Program-made: the position numbers and the translations under genes | DNA from: Tenericutes bacterium MZ-XQ | GTDB taxonomy: Bacteria > Bacillota_I > Bacilli_A > Acholeplasmatales > Acholeplasmataceae | Length of the DNA: 64,000 nucleotides | Direction of reading: 5' to 3' | Assembly: GCA_002838205.1 (NCBI GenBank) | Contig: CP017950.1 | Span: 1,680,858 to 1,744,857 of the forward strand | In this document: piece after piece, positions 271-6,907 of the stretch | Position numbering within the stretch: position 1 is the stretch's first letter | How the letters are laid out: each line of letters begins with the position of its first letter | The notes under the pieces: model-generated | Databases searched by the model: none | Seen by the model: only the letters and a program-made list of their open reading frames with translations | What the model was told of the DNA's origin: nothing

Positions 271-1437
271 ATGTACTTAATCGGAATTGATATCTCTAAG
301 TACAAACACGACTGCTTCATAGCTACTGAAGCAGGTATTCAAATCAAAGCATTCAGCTTTGATAACAATCGTTTAGGTTTCGATTTATTTCTTGAGGTCT
401 TAAAATCTTTAGATCAGTCAAAAGAAATAAGAATAGGTCTTGAGTCAACAGGACACTATGGATCAAACCTTAAACAGTTTATCACGGCATCTGGTTATAC
501 TTATCTGGAATTTAACCCTTACTTAACGCACATGTTTTCCAAGGCATTATCGTTACGTAAGACAAAGACAGATAAAGTTGACGCCAAAACGATTTCAAGT
601 ATGCTAGGTTCTGTTGACTACAAGACCTTACATACTAAATTTTACCACATCAACGAATTAAAACAACTGGTAAGGTATCGTCATGTTCAAATGGTCAATC
701 GTTCTAAAACACTCATTGAACTGACAAACATCCTTGATCGTATCTTTCCTGAGTTTAAACCTTTTTTTAACGAAAGACTCTCTAGTAGTGCGATGTTCAT
801 CCTTAAAAAGTTCAAATCCAGAGCAAGAATTTCGAAACTTTCTAACAATGACTATGAATCCATTAGAAGTCACTCTAAAGGCAGATTATCTTATGTTAGA
901 GTTCAAAAACTTAAATCTTTAGCTAAATCATCAGTTGGATATGAAACTCAGTCTGATCTGTTACTTCTTAAACACTCCATAAAACACTATGAGACGTTAA
1001 CTGAAATCATTGAATCTGTTGAACATGAAATCATCCATCTCATGGAAAATATCAATCAAACACTGACAACCATTCCAGGTCTCAACATCATCTCTGCAGC
1101 AATTATCATCGCCGAACTTGGTGATTTTAAAAACTTTACAAATCCAGCTCAAATTGTTTCATTTGCTGGACTGGATACATCTGTCAATCAATCAGGAACA
1201 ATAGAAACCAGAGGACATATCGTCAAACGTGGATCCGGATTACTTAGAATGACTTTTTGGCAAATCACTTTTGCGGGCTTAAGATTGAATCCTAAACTCT
1301 ATGATTATTACCTTAAGAAACGTGCTGAAGGTAAACATCATAAAGTCGCCATGGTTCACTCTGTTAGAAAACTAATACGCACGATATACTATTTAGGTGT
1401 CAACCAACTGACATTTGATCATTCACATTTCAAATAA
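271..1437 (+). CDS. IS110-family transposase
   Basis: 388-residue DEDD recombinase that excises and inserts the IS110 element. The N-terminal RuvC-like domain shows D7 (GIDIS), E58 (GLESTG) and the D101/D104 pair (TKTDKVDAK). The C-terminal Transposase_20 domain starts near residue 265 (TIPGLNIISA) and includes SFAGLD and the conserved RGSG region near 325. Length is normal for the family and the frame is intact, so the enzyme could be active. The start is set by a GGAGG site about 7 bases upstream. It lies downstream of the candidate bridge RNA and converges on sufS. Confidence 0.93.
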   Translation: MYLIGIDISKYKHDCFIATEAGIQIKAFSFDNNRLGFDLFLEVLKSLDQSKEIRIGLESTGHYGSNLKQFITASGYTYLEFNPYLTHMFSKALSLRKTKTDKVDAKTISSMLGSVDYKTLHTKFYHINELKQLVRYRHVQMVNRSKTLIELTNILDRIFPEFKPFFNERLSSSAMFILKKFKSRARISKLSNNDYESIRSHSKGRLSYVRVQKLKSLAKSSVGYETQSDLLLLKHSIKHYETLTEIIESVEHEIIHLMENINQTLTTIPGLNIISAAIIIAELGDFKNFTNPAQIVSFAGLDTSVNQSGTIETRGHIVKRGSGLLRMTFWQITFAGLRLNPKLYDYYLKKRAEGKHHKVAMVHSVRKLIRTIYYLGVNQLTFDHSHFK

Positions 1438-2755: not shown

Positions 2756-3627
2756 ATTCTTGAGTTTACAAGATTTACAAATCTTTCTCTTAATGGTTCA
2801 TCATCGATTTCATCAATGATTGGTTTTAAGAATCCATTAATAATTAATTTTTCAGCTTCAGCTCTATTCAATCCTCTACTTTGCAGATAATAAAGTTGTT
2901 CTTCTTCGATTCTACCAATGGTAGCACCATGACCAGCTTTAACATCATATTCATCAATAAGTAGTATTGGATTTACTTCGACAACAGCCTTATCTGAAGT
3001 AATAATACCTTTTAAGGTTTGGAAAGCATTTGCATTCTTCATACCTTTCTCAATTTTTTCAACACCATTAAGTAATATTCTACCTGATTTATTTGCTATG
3101 CCTATGTTTGTCATATTACCAAATGTGTTCGGTGCTTTGTGTACAATCAATACATCAATACTTTGTTTATGTTCATCTGATGATACTGCAACAGCTCTCA
3201 TATTAACTTCGGCACCTTCACCAATAAGATCTACATGCATTTTCGCTTCGATGACATTGCTTACAAATCCACCAATTAAATCTAATTTTGCATCTCTATG
3301 TGCTGTAAAATAATGTTCTAGCAATGCTTTGTTACTTTCTAATTCACTAACAAGTAAATATTTAACTTGACTATTATCTTTTGCGATTAAATTAAGCTTA
3401 TACGTGTTTTCTATTAAATCTGTACTTGCAATTTCTAAAATGATTTTAATACTTGTATGTTCTGATACGATGATTGTCAAATCCTCGTTGTTATCGTCTT
3501 CAATCGTTATTTTTATAGGATCTGGGTAATGGTTATTTTTAGGAATGATTAATTTTTGATTTTCAAAAACAAACCCGCTTGGAATGTTTGATGTTATTTC
3601 ATGATTCTTAATAACAATTGATTCCAT
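2752..3627 (-). CDS. sufD: Fe-S cluster assembly protein SufD
   Basis: 291-residue member of the SufB/SufD (UPF0051) family, the scaffold subunit that binds the SufC ATPase. The C-terminal half holds the family core, with runs such as NPILLIDEYDVKAGHGATIG and the following YYLQSRGL. It is short compared with typical SufD (about 420 residues), the missing part being N-terminal. The start overlaps the sufC stop by one base (TAATG) and the end overlaps sufS, which indicates translational coupling. Assignment as SufD rather than SufB rests on gene order and short length. Confidence 0.87.
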   Translation of the reverse strand: MESIVIKNHEITSNIPSGFVFENQKLIIPKNNHYPDPIKITIEDDNNEDLTIIVSEHTSIKIILEIASTDLIENTYKLNLIAKDNSQVKYLLVSELESNKALLEHYFTAHRDAKLDLIGGFVSNVIEAKMHVDLIGEGAEVNMRAVAVSSDEHKQSIDVLIVHKAPNTFGNMTNIGIANKSGRILLNGVEKIEKGMKNANAFQTLKGIITSDKAVVEVNPILLIDEYDVKAGHGATIGRIEEEQLYYLQSRGLNRAEAEKLIINGFLKPIIDEIDDEPLRERFVNLVNSRI

Positions 3628-4394
3628 TACGCTTCCTCTACTTCAAAATCTATACCTAATTCATCCTTGATCCATTCGTAACCATTTTTATCAATTTTTT
3701 CGATAAGTTCTTTTCCACCACTCATTACAATCTTACCATCGATCATAATGTGTACATTAGTTGGTGTAATATGATCTAGGATACGTTGATAGTGTGTAAT
3801 CAAGATACATCCAAACTCATCATTAACCATACCACTTACATTTTCACCAACAATTTTTAATGCGTCTACATCTAATCCTGAATCTATTTCATCAAGAATT
3901 GCAAATTTAGGTTTTAATACTTTAAGTTGAAGAATCTCATTTCTTTTTCTTTCTCCACCACTAAAACCTTCATTTAAATAGCGATGCGCTAAGTCTGGTC
4001 TCATTTTTAATTCTTCAACCATTTTTTCATACTTAATCGCAAAGTCAAACAATCCAACCTCTTGACCTGAAGTTGCCTTAAGTGCTTGACGCATAAAATC
4101 ACTATTTGTAACACCTGGAACTTCCGCTGGATATTGCATAGCTAAAAATAAGCCCGCACGAGCTCTTTCATCAACTTCCATCTCAAGAATGTTTTCACCA
4201 TCTAAAAATGCTTCACCTGAAGTAATTTCATATTTTGGATGTCCCATCAGTGCACTCGCAAGTGTTGATTTCCCAGTACCGTTTGGACCCATAATTGCAT
4301 GAACTTCTCCAGAATTAACTAAAAGATTTACGCCTTTTAATATCTCTTTGCCTTCGATTTCTACATGAAGGTTTTTGATTTCTAATTTTGCCAT
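3627..4394 (-). CDS. sufC: Fe-S assembly ATPase SufC
   Basis: 255-residue ABC-type ATPase of the SUF system. Walker A is GPNGTGKS (36-43), the signature is the degenerate FSGGERKRNE typical of SufC, and Walker B with switch is FAILDEIDSGLD. I chose the ATG at 4394 because AAGGAGG lies 5 bases upstream; a longer frame beginning at 4415 adds seven residues with no ribosome site. It is first in the operon. A TATAAT box sits about 26 bases upstream of the start. Confidence 0.95.
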   Translation of the reverse strand: MAKLEIKNLHVEIEGKEILKGVNLLVNSGEVHAIMGPNGTGKSTLASALMGHPKYEITSGEAFLDGENILEMEVDERARAGLFLAMQYPAEVPGVTNSDFMRQALKATSGQEVGLFDFAIKYEKMVEELKMRPDLAHRYLNEGFSGGERKRNEILQLKVLKPKFAILDEIDSGLDVDALKIVGENVSGMVNDEFGCILITHYQRILDHITPTNVHIMIDGKIVMSGGKELIEKIDKNGYEWIKDELGIDFEVEEA

Positions 4395-4419: not shown

Positions 4420-4425
4420 ATTATA
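4420..4425 (-). promoter_or_regulatory. -10 box of the suf operon
   Basis: TATAAT on the minus strand, about 26 bases upstream of the sufC ATG. The matching -35 (TTAGAT near 4444-4449) is weak, which suits an activated or regulated promoter. Confidence 0.5.
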
Positions 4426-4478
4426 AACTATTTCCCAAAATATATCTAATAATATACTAACTATATCGATAAATCATA

Positions 4479-4493
4479 GGGAAACGTTTTCAA
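4479..4493 (-). promoter_or_regulatory. cre-like palindrome upstream of suf operon
   Basis: On the minus strand the site reads TTGAAAACGTTTCCC, matching the CcpA consensus WTGNAANCGNWNNCW at every position but the last. It lies about 55 bases upstream of the suf -10 box and about 24 bases from the -35 of the small RNA promoter on the other strand, so it could serve either. Similar sites occur at 17499, 38412 and 55343. Confidence 0.4.
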
Positions 4494-4516
4494 TGAAAAT
4501 TTTATGTAAATTTACA

Positions 4517-4545
4517 TTGACTTTCAATTTTTTATGTTATTATAT
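4517..4545 (+). promoter_or_regulatory. promoter of the small RNA gene
   Basis: TTGACT (4517-4522) is followed at 15-17 bases by an AT-rich -10 region (TATTAT/TTATAT, 4538-4545). No protein gene follows on this strand; a structured stretch and a terminator do. Confidence 0.6.
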
Positions 4546-4550
4546 ATGTG

Positions 4551-4710
4551 TAGTCGTTGACCTTTTATATCAACATACTGCAATTAATGTATTTTTCTCC
4601 CAAAATACAGCGTGTTACTTACGCTTGATATACTTGGACTGCCATCCACAGGTATCATCATAAAAAAGTTAACTCCCTAAAAAAATGGACTTCCTAAGAA
4701 GTCCTTTTTT
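4551..4710 (+). ncRNA. structured small RNA of unknown family
   Basis: About 160 bases between a good promoter and a perfect terminator, with no reading frame of note. The predicted fold has GUUGAC (4556-4561) paired with GUUAAC (4668-4673). Inside it AUAUCA (4567-4572) pairs with UGAUAU (4626-4631) and encloses two hairpins: GUAUUUU/AAAAUAC (4589-4595/4602-4608) and AGCGU/ACGCU (4609-4613/4621-4625). A small hairpin (UGCC/GGUA, near 4640-4654) lies in the 3' arm. A rod with a bulged centre and a 3'-arm hairpin resembles 6S RNA in outline, but I see no decisive 6S sequence. It is not recognisable as SRP RNA, tmRNA or RNase P RNA. Confidence 0.6.
4687..4710 (+). terminator. terminator of the small RNA
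   Basis: GGACTTC (4687-4693), loop CTAA, GAAGTCC (4698-4704), then six T. The 7-bp stem is perfect. Confidence 0.9.
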
Positions 4711-4759
4711 ATTTTATTAATCAAGGGTCACTCTTTTTGTTGTTTATTCTATGTTTTTA

Positions 4760-6907
4760 TCATGGGTTGTGTGATAAGACAAGATCTAAATCCTCTGGAT
4801 TCCAACTTGATGTCCATGTCTCTGGAACTGAAGCCATTTGTAAGTAAATGGTTAGATTAGAGCATCCATAAAAGACATAATGTCCCATCGTTACTAAATT
4901 ATTTTGTAGATATATTTCATCAAGTGCCAAACATCCTCCAAATGCCCCATCATCAATGGTTTGTAGAGATGCTGGTAAATTCACTTCATTTAAACTTGAA
5001 CTGCCATAAAATGCATAAGCTTTTATCTCTAATACGCCTTCACTTATCGTAACTGTTTCAAGTTCACTATTTCCATAAAATGCATATTCACCAATTGAAG
5101 TGACTGTACCTGGAATCACGATATTTTTTAACATCTGATTGTTATAAAATGCGTGATCTCCTATTTCTGTTATATCGTTTGCGAATGTAACTGTTGTTAG
5201 ACTTTCACAACCATAACATAAATCAGATTGAATTTTCTTAACTTGATTTGGTATGTTTAATTCAGTTAATGCTGTATTTCCGTAAAATGCTCCACTACCA
5301 AGAAATGTTAGATTACTTGGTAAATCAATGCTTGTCAAGCTTGTATTATACTCAAATGCTCCACTACCAATATGGGTTATACTATTTGGTAATGTAATCT
5401 GTTCTAAACTTGATGCACCACTAAATGCACGATCTCCAATGCCAACTAATGTACTAGGCAAAGTAATATTTTTTAAAGATCTTGCTTGTTGAAACAAGTG
5501 AGGACTTAAACTTGTGATGGAATTAGGAATTGAAACATTATCCAATTGATAATTATTTTTAAATGCACCTTCACCAATATGGGTGATTTGATTATGAAGA
5601 CTAATACTTTCTAAGTTGATTGCTCCTAAAAAAGCCTCTTTACCTATATAAATGATGTGATTAGGTACTGTAAATGTTGTTAAACTATAATTATTTTGAA
5701 ATAAATTATCACTGATTTTACTGATGTTAGTTGATAAACTGACTTCAGCTAAATACGGAGCGTTTGCAAACGCAAAACTTCCTATAGTAGATACACTATC
5801 TGGGATTTCAAGCGATGTGAAATGATTAGCCATGAATGCACCAGAACCTATACTGAGTACACCATATGGAATCTCAATTTCTGATAAAGCATATGTATAA
5901 GCAAAAGCTTGATCACCAATGGAAGTAACCGTATTTGGTATCTCAATTTGATTGAGTTTGGTTGCTCCAAAGAATAACTCATCAGGGATACTCGTCATAT
6001 TATCCGGTAAGTCTACACTTGTTAAACTACTGGCTCCATAGAAAACTCCAGTTGATAAAATGATATCCTTTGGCAACTCAATTTCTACAAGATTTCTCGT
6101 ATGTGCAAATGCATAATCTTTAATTTCTATGATGTCGTCGTGTACAATAACACTTTCGATGGGTTCTCCGTAAAATGCTGATGGTCCAATAGAAACGACT
6201 TTTTGATTATTGATTCTTTTAGGAATCTCAACATGAGTATCTGATGATCGATAAGCTGCGATTTCTACTCCGCCATCAACTTCTCTAACAATAAACTTTT
6301 TCCCAGGTGTTTCAAATGATAATGCTGCAAAAGTCAATACGAGTATGAATAAACCTGATACAAATATGACGATATTTTGTTTCTCTTTTTCACTGATAAA
6401 TAAAAGAATACCTCCAAAGAAAACAAAGAATCCAATGGTAAACATCATGGTAATTGGAATCCATGTGATGCCATTAAAATATGGAATGATGGTCGAAATC
6501 GGGATAATTAGAAGCGTTGTTAAGAAAAACGAAGTCCAGTTCATAATATAAGCAAAACTCTTACGATGCCAATAATGTTGTGTACCTATAATTGAAAAAA
6601 CGGCAATTGTCACACCAATAACAAATACACTAATCCATAAAATGTTAAAAATAATACCGATTGTGATTGCTATAATCATGACAATGAGATTGATCATCAA
6701 GTCTCTTTGACTGAGTTTGCTATACTTAACTTTTTGCTGTGATAAAAAATCACCTTCTTGAGCACCTTGCCTGTAGCAATCCAGTGCTAAATCATGATCT
6801 CTTTTAATACCAACACCAAATTGATACTTCAACCCTTTTCTATAGTGTTCGTTATCGTTATCATGTCTTCTTGAAGCTCTTTTTCTGTATTTCCTAAGTA
6901 ATCTCAC
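4760..6907 (-). CDS. membrane-anchored BspA-like leucine-rich repeat protein
   Basis: 715 residues. The first 60 are basic and then Sel1-like (YQFGVGIKRDHDLALDCYRQGA). Four or five hydrophobic helices follow between about 70 and 200. The rest (about 215-700) is some 20 copies of a 23-residue LRR_5 repeat of the form IGxxAFYGxxSLxxIxLP. BspA-type repeats are usually surface adhesins or binding proteins; here the helices would anchor them, replacing a signal peptide. The start is GTG (6907), with AGAGGG 10 bases upstream. It is last in a long minus-strand run behind the Opp genes, 19 bases after a small membrane protein. Function unknown; binding of host or polymer is inference. Confidence 0.85.
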   Translation of the reverse strand: MRLLRKYRKRASRRHDNDNEHYRKGLKYQFGVGIKRDHDLALDCYRQGAQEGDFLSQQKVKYSKLSQRDLMINLIVMIIAITIGIIFNILWISVFVIGVTIAVFSIIGTQHYWHRKSFAYIMNWTSFFLTTLLIIPISTIIPYFNGITWIPITMMFTIGFFVFFGGILLFISEKEKQNIVIFVSGLFILVLTFAALSFETPGKKFIVREVDGGVEIAAYRSSDTHVEIPKRINNQKVVSIGPSAFYGEPIESVIVHDDIIEIKDYAFAHTRNLVEIELPKDIILSTGVFYGASSLTSVDLPDNMTSIPDELFFGATKLNQIEIPNTVTSIGDQAFAYTYALSEIEIPYGVLSIGSGAFMANHFTSLEIPDSVSTIGSFAFANAPYLAEVSLSTNISKISDNLFQNNYSLTTFTVPNHIIYIGKEAFLGAINLESISLHNQITHIGEGAFKNNYQLDNVSIPNSITSLSPHLFQQARSLKNITLPSTLVGIGDRAFSGASSLEQITLPNSITHIGSGAFEYNTSLTSIDLPSNLTFLGSGAFYGNTALTELNIPNQVKKIQSDLCYGCESLTTVTFANDITEIGDHAFYNNQMLKNIVIPGTVTSIGEYAFYGNSELETVTISEGVLEIKAYAFYGSSSLNEVNLPASLQTIDDGAFGGCLALDEIYLQNNLVTMGHYVFYGCSNLTIYLQMASVPETWTSSWNPEDLDLVLSHNP

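What the first reader, a model, noticed from the sequence alone, without database searches (positions are those of the whole stretch)
4517..4710. Unassigned stand-alone small RNA gene
A TTGACT promoter, about 160 bases with several compatible stems and no frame, and a perfect terminator, with no gene downstream on that strand. The outline (outer stem, bulged centre, small 3'-arm hairpin) recalls 6S RNA, but I cannot confirm that.
Basis: partly seen in the sequence, partly recalled or inferred. Interest (0 to 1): 0.6.

Follow-up and report, generated by a model that had tools for sequence, protein, structure and literature searches.

The report
Conserved sugar-linked small RNA beside sufC
A short, strongly conserved RNA gene in wall-less bacteria of the order Acholeplasmatales sits beside an iron-sulfur gene, carries a sugar-control (CcpA-type) DNA switch in front of it, and shows C-rich loops that probably silence messages of nutrient-use genes; it is a new RNA family of a familiar kind.

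Summary
The stand-alone RNA gene is real: about 4550-4711 (+), with a terminator. It folds better than all 200 shuffles (z -4.7), and a covariance model finds it in 32 of 88 genomes of the family and 36 of 160 of the order. It lies head-to-head with sufC in every one of 30 homologs with enough flank. Compensatory changes support a 5' hairpin, an ACCU/AGGU stem around a GCCAUCC-loop hairpin, and the terminator; a CUCCC-loop hairpin is nearly invariant. It is not 6S RNA, matches no Rfam 15 family and encodes no conserved peptide.

The quoted TTGACT is not conserved. The genome has a CcpA-like regulator and HPr kinase.

Best reading: a CcpA-controlled, probably CcpA-activated, trans-acting small RNA whose invariant CUCCC loop pairs with GGGAG-type Shine-Dalgarno sites of transport and catabolic genes, as RsaI, RoxS and FsrA do elsewhere in Firmicutes. 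Gene, fold and operator sequence are shown by comparison; transcription, CcpA binding, direction of control and targets are inferred. New RNA family, known kind of regulator.

The parts
4479..4492 (-). cre-type operator TGAAAACGTTTCCC (13 of 14 to TGWAARCGYTWNCW), centre about 64 bases before the RNA start
   Evidence: ends 53-55 bases before the modelled RNA 5' end in 28 homologs; related sites in the second family of the order. Protein binding not tested.
4504..4517 (.). Perfect palindrome ATGTAAATTTACAT just upstream of the core promoter; role unknown
   Evidence: found nowhere else in four genomes of the genus; degenerate in other genera.
4538..4543 (+). -10 element TATTAT, preceded by TGT (extended type)
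   Evidence: Conserved as TATAAT/TATTAT/TAAAAT in homologs.
4550..4711 (+). Small RNA, about 160 nt (predicted ends)
4549..4582 (+). H1, 5' hairpin with ACCUUUU in the loop (4560-4566)
   Evidence: own arms pair better than swapped arms, z -9.4.
4588..4609 (+). H2, hairpin UGUAUUUUU-CUCCC-AAAAUACA; loop CUCCC at 4597-4601
   Evidence: UUUUUCUCCCAA nearly invariant; mean P(unpaired) of CUCCC 1.00 over 31 homologs.
4614..4674 (+). P3, long-range stem (usually ACCU/AGGU) around H4; imperfect in this genome
   Evidence: z -5.4, many compensated forms.
4626..4659 (+). H4, hairpin with invariant GCCAUCC (4641-4647)
   Evidence: (z -14.9).
4673..4677 (+). Second CUCCC, single-stranded before the terminator
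   Evidence: Present in about half the homologs; P(unpaired) 0.75.
4687..4710 (+). Intrinsic terminator GGACUUC-CUAA-GAAGUCC and U run
   Evidence: 98.5% of cells paired, double changes in 6 of 7 pairs.
3627..4394 (-). sufC (Fe-S assembly ATPase), divergent neighbour, conserved synteny
   Evidence: beside the RNA in all 30 homologs that have enough flanking sequence.

Best explanation
A trans-acting small regulatory RNA of about 160 nt, the founding member of a new RNA family of Acholeplasmatales. Shown by sequence comparison: an own promoter with a cre-type operator centred about 64 bases upstream of the start, a conserved multi-hairpin fold, a terminator, no conserved peptide, and unpaired C-rich loops under strict conservation. 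Inferred: CcpA with HPr(Ser-P) binds the cre and, because the site lies upstream of the promoter, more likely activates than represses the RNA when a preferred sugar is present. The CUCCC loop, possibly helped by the GCCAUCC loop, the ACCUUUU loop and the 3' CUCCC, then pairs with GGGAG(AAA) Shine-Dalgarno sites and blocks translation of transport and alternative-substrate genes.
For: Homologs by covariance model in 32/88 and 36/160 genomes, all beside sufC. Covariation. cre at fixed distance, while the distance from cre to sufC varies (G021). CcpA-like protein with TIGR01481 clearly the best family, 295 bits against 170 for the next, and HPr kinase. CcpA is reported only in Acholeplasmatales among the Mollicutes studied (PMC5138195). 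Upstream cre sites usually activate (PMC3796520). CUCCC always unpaired. GGGAGAAA-ATG sites precede sugar-symporter, epimerase, glycerol kinase, sugar ABC, alanine dehydrogenase and similar genes.
Against: No expression data. The CcpA match is under the curated cut-off (295 of 442 bits), and the genome has six other LacI-family proteins with similar operators. Cre-like sites are no more frequent in the genome than a backwards control (7 against 4). Targets were picked by pattern from three genomes; functional enrichment was not measured.
Confidence: 0.6

Rival explanations
1. The same small RNA, but repressed rather than activated by CcpA, or controlled by another LacI-type protein, so that it accumulates when sugar runs out, as RsaI does in Staphylococcus aureus.
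For: RsaI is CcpA-repressed and pairs with Shine-Dalgarno sites (PMC9266662). Seven LacI-family proteins are encoded. Upstream cre sites can repress (the E. faecalis agu operon, PMC3796520).
Against: The site is upstream of the promoter, not on it, and the -35 is weak and not conserved, which fits an activated promoter.
Confidence: 0.25
2. A small RNA that acts mainly by binding a protein or another RNA (sponge or structural role); the C-rich loops are not used on mRNAs.
For: GCCAUCC is not a Shine-Dalgarno complement, and one f5 homolog (L116) has lost the CUCCC loop but kept GCCAUCC and the 3' CUCCC. No target was proven.
Against: CUCCC is otherwise nearly invariant, always in a loop, and complementary to Shine-Dalgarno cores.
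Confidence: 0.1
3. Leader or attenuator of the downstream gene, or a gene for a short peptide.
For: A similar membrane-protein gene follows on the + strand in roughly ten homologs. About ten homologs can read AUG-YFSPK from the CUCCC hairpin.
Against: In this genome and several others the downstream gene is different or convergent while the RNA is kept; a promoter-like TGGACA-N17-TATCAT stands between RNA and gene in several genomes. Peptide start and frame are not conserved.
Confidence: 0.04
4. A divergent 6S RNA.
For: Length and stand-alone gene only.
Against: No match at E <= 10 in the genome with a model that rings in 8 of 14 control genomes; the fold is not a rod with a central bubble.
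Confidence: 0.01

Closest known systems
RsaI (RsaOG) of Staphylococcus aureus
   Same: Small RNA under CcpA; C-rich region that pairs with Shine-Dalgarno sites of sugar genes (PMC9266662, PMC8216469)
   Different: No sequence or covariance match; cre upstream of the promoter instead of repressing; different fold; different order of bacteria
RoxS/RsaE and FsrA (C-rich-region RNAs of Bacillus subtilis)
   Same: Stand-alone RNAs that show C-rich unpaired regions to target Shine-Dalgarno sites of metabolic genes (PMC8216469)
   Different: Controlled by Rex or Fur, not cre; no Rfam match here
RosA of Bacillus subtilis
   Same: Small RNA under CcpA (PMC8216469)
   Different: RosA is G-rich and acts as a sponge; its cre overlaps the start and represses
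6S RNA
   Same: Size and stand-alone gene only
   Different: No model match, no central-bubble rod

Membership tests
6S RNA (RF00013) | Scores with the family model | tested here: not met
   no match in window, locally at E <= 10, or in the genome at E <= 10.
6S RNA (RF00013) | Long rod with large central bubble | tested here: not met
   separate hairpins plus P3 around H4.
RsaI / RoxS / FsrA families | Scores with the Rfam model of the family | tested here: not met
   no such family among matches up to E 10.
C-rich-loop trans-acting sRNA (kind, not family) | Independent transcription unit with promoter and terminator, no conserved ORF | tested here: met
   (from sequence; transcription not seen).
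C-rich-loop trans-acting sRNA (kind, not family) | Conserved unpaired C-rich motif | tested here: met
   CUCCC nearly invariant, P(unpaired) 1.00.
C-rich-loop trans-acting sRNA (kind, not family) | Pairs with Shine-Dalgarno sites of target mRNAs | tested here: inconclusive
   plausible sites; no enrichment test, no experiment.
CcpA regulon | cre operator at the promoter | tested here: met
   12-14 of 14 consensus positions at fixed distance in 28 homologs.
CcpA regulon | Genome encodes CcpA and HPr kinase | tested here: inconclusive
   HPr kinase over cut-off; CcpA-like protein with ccpA as best model but under its cut-off.
CcpA regulon | CcpA binding and sugar-dependent expression | not testable with these tools
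   Needs gel shift and Northern blot.

The most novel reading that the evidence does not exclude
A CcpA-activated small RNA that extends carbon catabolite control to the translation level in Mollicutes, through several Shine-Dalgarno-pairing loops in one RNA, making up for the very small transcriptional CcpA regulon reported there.
Probability: 0.35. Interest if true: 0.65.

Novelty: new member of a known kind. Interest (0 to 1): 0.5.

Why it matters
It gives a new, well-defined RNA family with covariation support, absent from Rfam 15, in a group where I found no described conserved regulatory small RNA. It ties that RNA to CcpA, which PMC5138195 reports only in Acholeplasmatales among the Mollicutes it studied and credits with just three operons in A. 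laidlawii. If the control is confirmed, sugar control in these reduced genomes works partly by RNA, and it can be tested in cultured members such as Peloplasma aerotolerans.

Tried and rejected
6S RNA: rejected. Other Rfam families at low threshold: only hits far below their gathering scores. Peptide gene: no conserved start or frame. Leader of the downstream gene: neighbour varies and is convergent here. Phytoplasma-like hit in G107: chance, at the end of a ribosomal protein gene. Weak blastn hits in many genomes (E 1e-4 to 0.01): short low-complexity matches, not used. Palindrome 4504-4517 as an operator shared by a regulon: it occurs nowhere else in four genomes. A strict cre pattern found one other site and a looser one was hardly more frequent than its backwards control, so a genome-wide cre regulon was not established. 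H4 loop against the sufC start codon: AUGGCA fits sufC of f1 genomes only, f5 sufC genes start differently, so not followed. Literature searches for earlier descriptions in Acholeplasma found none in the held library.

Full report
Observation. The minus-strand neighbour on the left is sufC (3627-4394); on the right is a minus-strand BspA-like repeat protein (4760-6907), so no gene follows the RNA on its strand. The segment folds at -36.2 kcal/mol against -20.6 for shuffles, z -4.7, 0 of 200.

Conservation. A DNA search of 61 genomes found clear homologs in eight others, down to 71-72% identity in other genera. A covariance model from these nine sequences found 32 of 88 genomes of the family and 36 of 160 of the order. 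A pattern scan of about 85,000 species genomes gave 36 stretches; those confirmed by the model are Acholeplasmataceae, Acholeplasmatales or Tenericutes records, or MAGs labelled only Bacillota or Mycoplasmatota, and the hits in unrelated phyla were not confirmed. sufC lies divergent beside the RNA in all 30 homologs with enough flank (G017 has only 22 bases upstream), and in the second family f5 (L114-L118). No such RNA is visible in front of sufC in eight genomes of genus g12. One weak hit among the small g8 genomes was chance.

Structure. The recurring elements are H1 (5' hairpin with ACCUUUU in the loop), H2 (hairpin with CUCCC loop), P3 (long-range stem, usually ACCU/AGGU) around H4 (hairpin with GCCAUCC), and the terminator. 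In a strand-swap test the arms of one RNA pair better with each other than with arms of other homologs: z -9.4 (H1), -4.1 (H2), -5.4 (P3), -14.9 (H4). P3 takes many compensated forms, for example AACC/GGUU, GACC/GGUC, UACC/GGUA, GCUC/GAGC, CAAUCA/UGAUUG. On the model alignment, which leans towards its own structure and holds neither H1 nor P3, 93% of cells pair, 21 of 30 pairs show double changes, and sliding the partners removes the signal. The U-A pairs of H2 hardly ever change, which fits a second use of that sequence in pairing with targets (inference). In this genome P3 is imperfect and a small local hairpin may replace it.

Promoter. The upstream alignment shows a near-invariant GGAAACGTTTTCAATG(A/T)AAA, that is TGAAAACGTTTCC on the other strand, matching 12 to 14 of 14 cre consensus positions and ending 53-55 bases before the modelled RNA 5' end in 28 homologs. 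G034 (44 bases) and the f5-type locus L071 (58) differ, and G017 has too little upstream sequence. Homologs in f5 keep related sites such as GGAAATCGTTTTCA. The distance from cre to sufC varies, with an insertion in G021, so the site belongs to the RNA. The -10 box is conserved and TTGACT is not, which fits an activated promoter. The genome holds a CcpA-like protein, best model TIGR01481 at 295 bits but under the cut-off of 442, and an HPr kinase. A tandem pair of the same operator stands before a gene that I read as pyruvate formate-lyase from its translation. PMC5138195 reports CcpA only in Acholeplasmatales among the Mollicutes studied, with three operons. PMC3796520 states that genes with cre sites upstream of their promoters are as a rule activated, while reporting an exception.

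Mechanism. CUCCC in H2 is unpaired in every homolog (mean P 1.00), GCCAUC 0.75, the 3' CUCCC 0.75 where present, against 0.40 for the whole RNA. CUCCC is complementary to GGGAG, a Shine-Dalgarno core. GGGAGAAA followed by ATG occurs 10, 9 and 14 times in three genomes against 5, 6 and 3 for the backwards control. Most matches precede real genes, many for transport or catabolism: GPH symporter, epimerase, sulfatase, glycerol kinase, sugar ABC ATPase, alanine dehydrogenase, an amino-acid dehydrogenase, ornithine carbamoyltransferase. An MgtC-type gene (G000, G004), and a lipoprotein gene and a TetR gene (G000, G019), carry the site in two genomes each. No background of gene functions was measured, so enrichment is not shown.

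Comparison. It works most like the C-rich-region RNAs RsaI, RoxS/RsaE and FsrA, but matches none of them by covariance model, so it is filed as a new family of a known kind. Shown by sequence: gene, fold, operator sequence, distribution. Inferred: transcription, CcpA binding, activation, targets.

Noticed in passing
L002 and L022 (Tenericutes bacterium MO-XQ, about 1.70 and 1.60 Mb): The sufC/small-RNA locus is present twice, identical over 3.2 kb and about 99 kb apart: a recent duplication or an assembly artefact.
   Followed up: partly
window 4420-4470 and the same place in homologs: Conserved TTAGCATATAAATAGCA-like repeat (TAGCA twice, 11 bases apart) between sufC and the cre, in suf promoter orientation; possibly an operator of the suf operon.
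   Followed up: no
L159 near 1480-1530 (G000:C1 about 179,660): Two tandem GAAAACGTTTTCA operators followed by an AT-rich palindrome, before a gene that looks like pyruvate formate-lyase; same layout as the small RNA promoter.
   Followed up: partly
L116 (G157), f5 homolog: The H2 hairpin is kept but its CUCCC loop has become UUUUCUUUU-like, while GCCAUCC and GGUGACUCCC remain: a natural loop variant.
   Followed up: no
window 271-1437: ORF that reads like an IS110-type transposase; its flanks (1-270) were not examined for a bridge RNA.
   Followed up: no
window 50401 (+): A galactokinase-like gene starts with GGGGTGAAACGATG; predicted duplex with the H2 loop -13.3 kcal/mol against a window mean of -10.7.
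   Followed up: no
L078, L079, L081, L084, L090, L093, L095, L102, L105, L115, downstream of the RNA: A recurring membrane-protein gene (MLDKxNNKLSLLT...LLFDxxTIISNIY) follows on the same strand in about ten homologs but is not there in this genome.
   Followed up: partly
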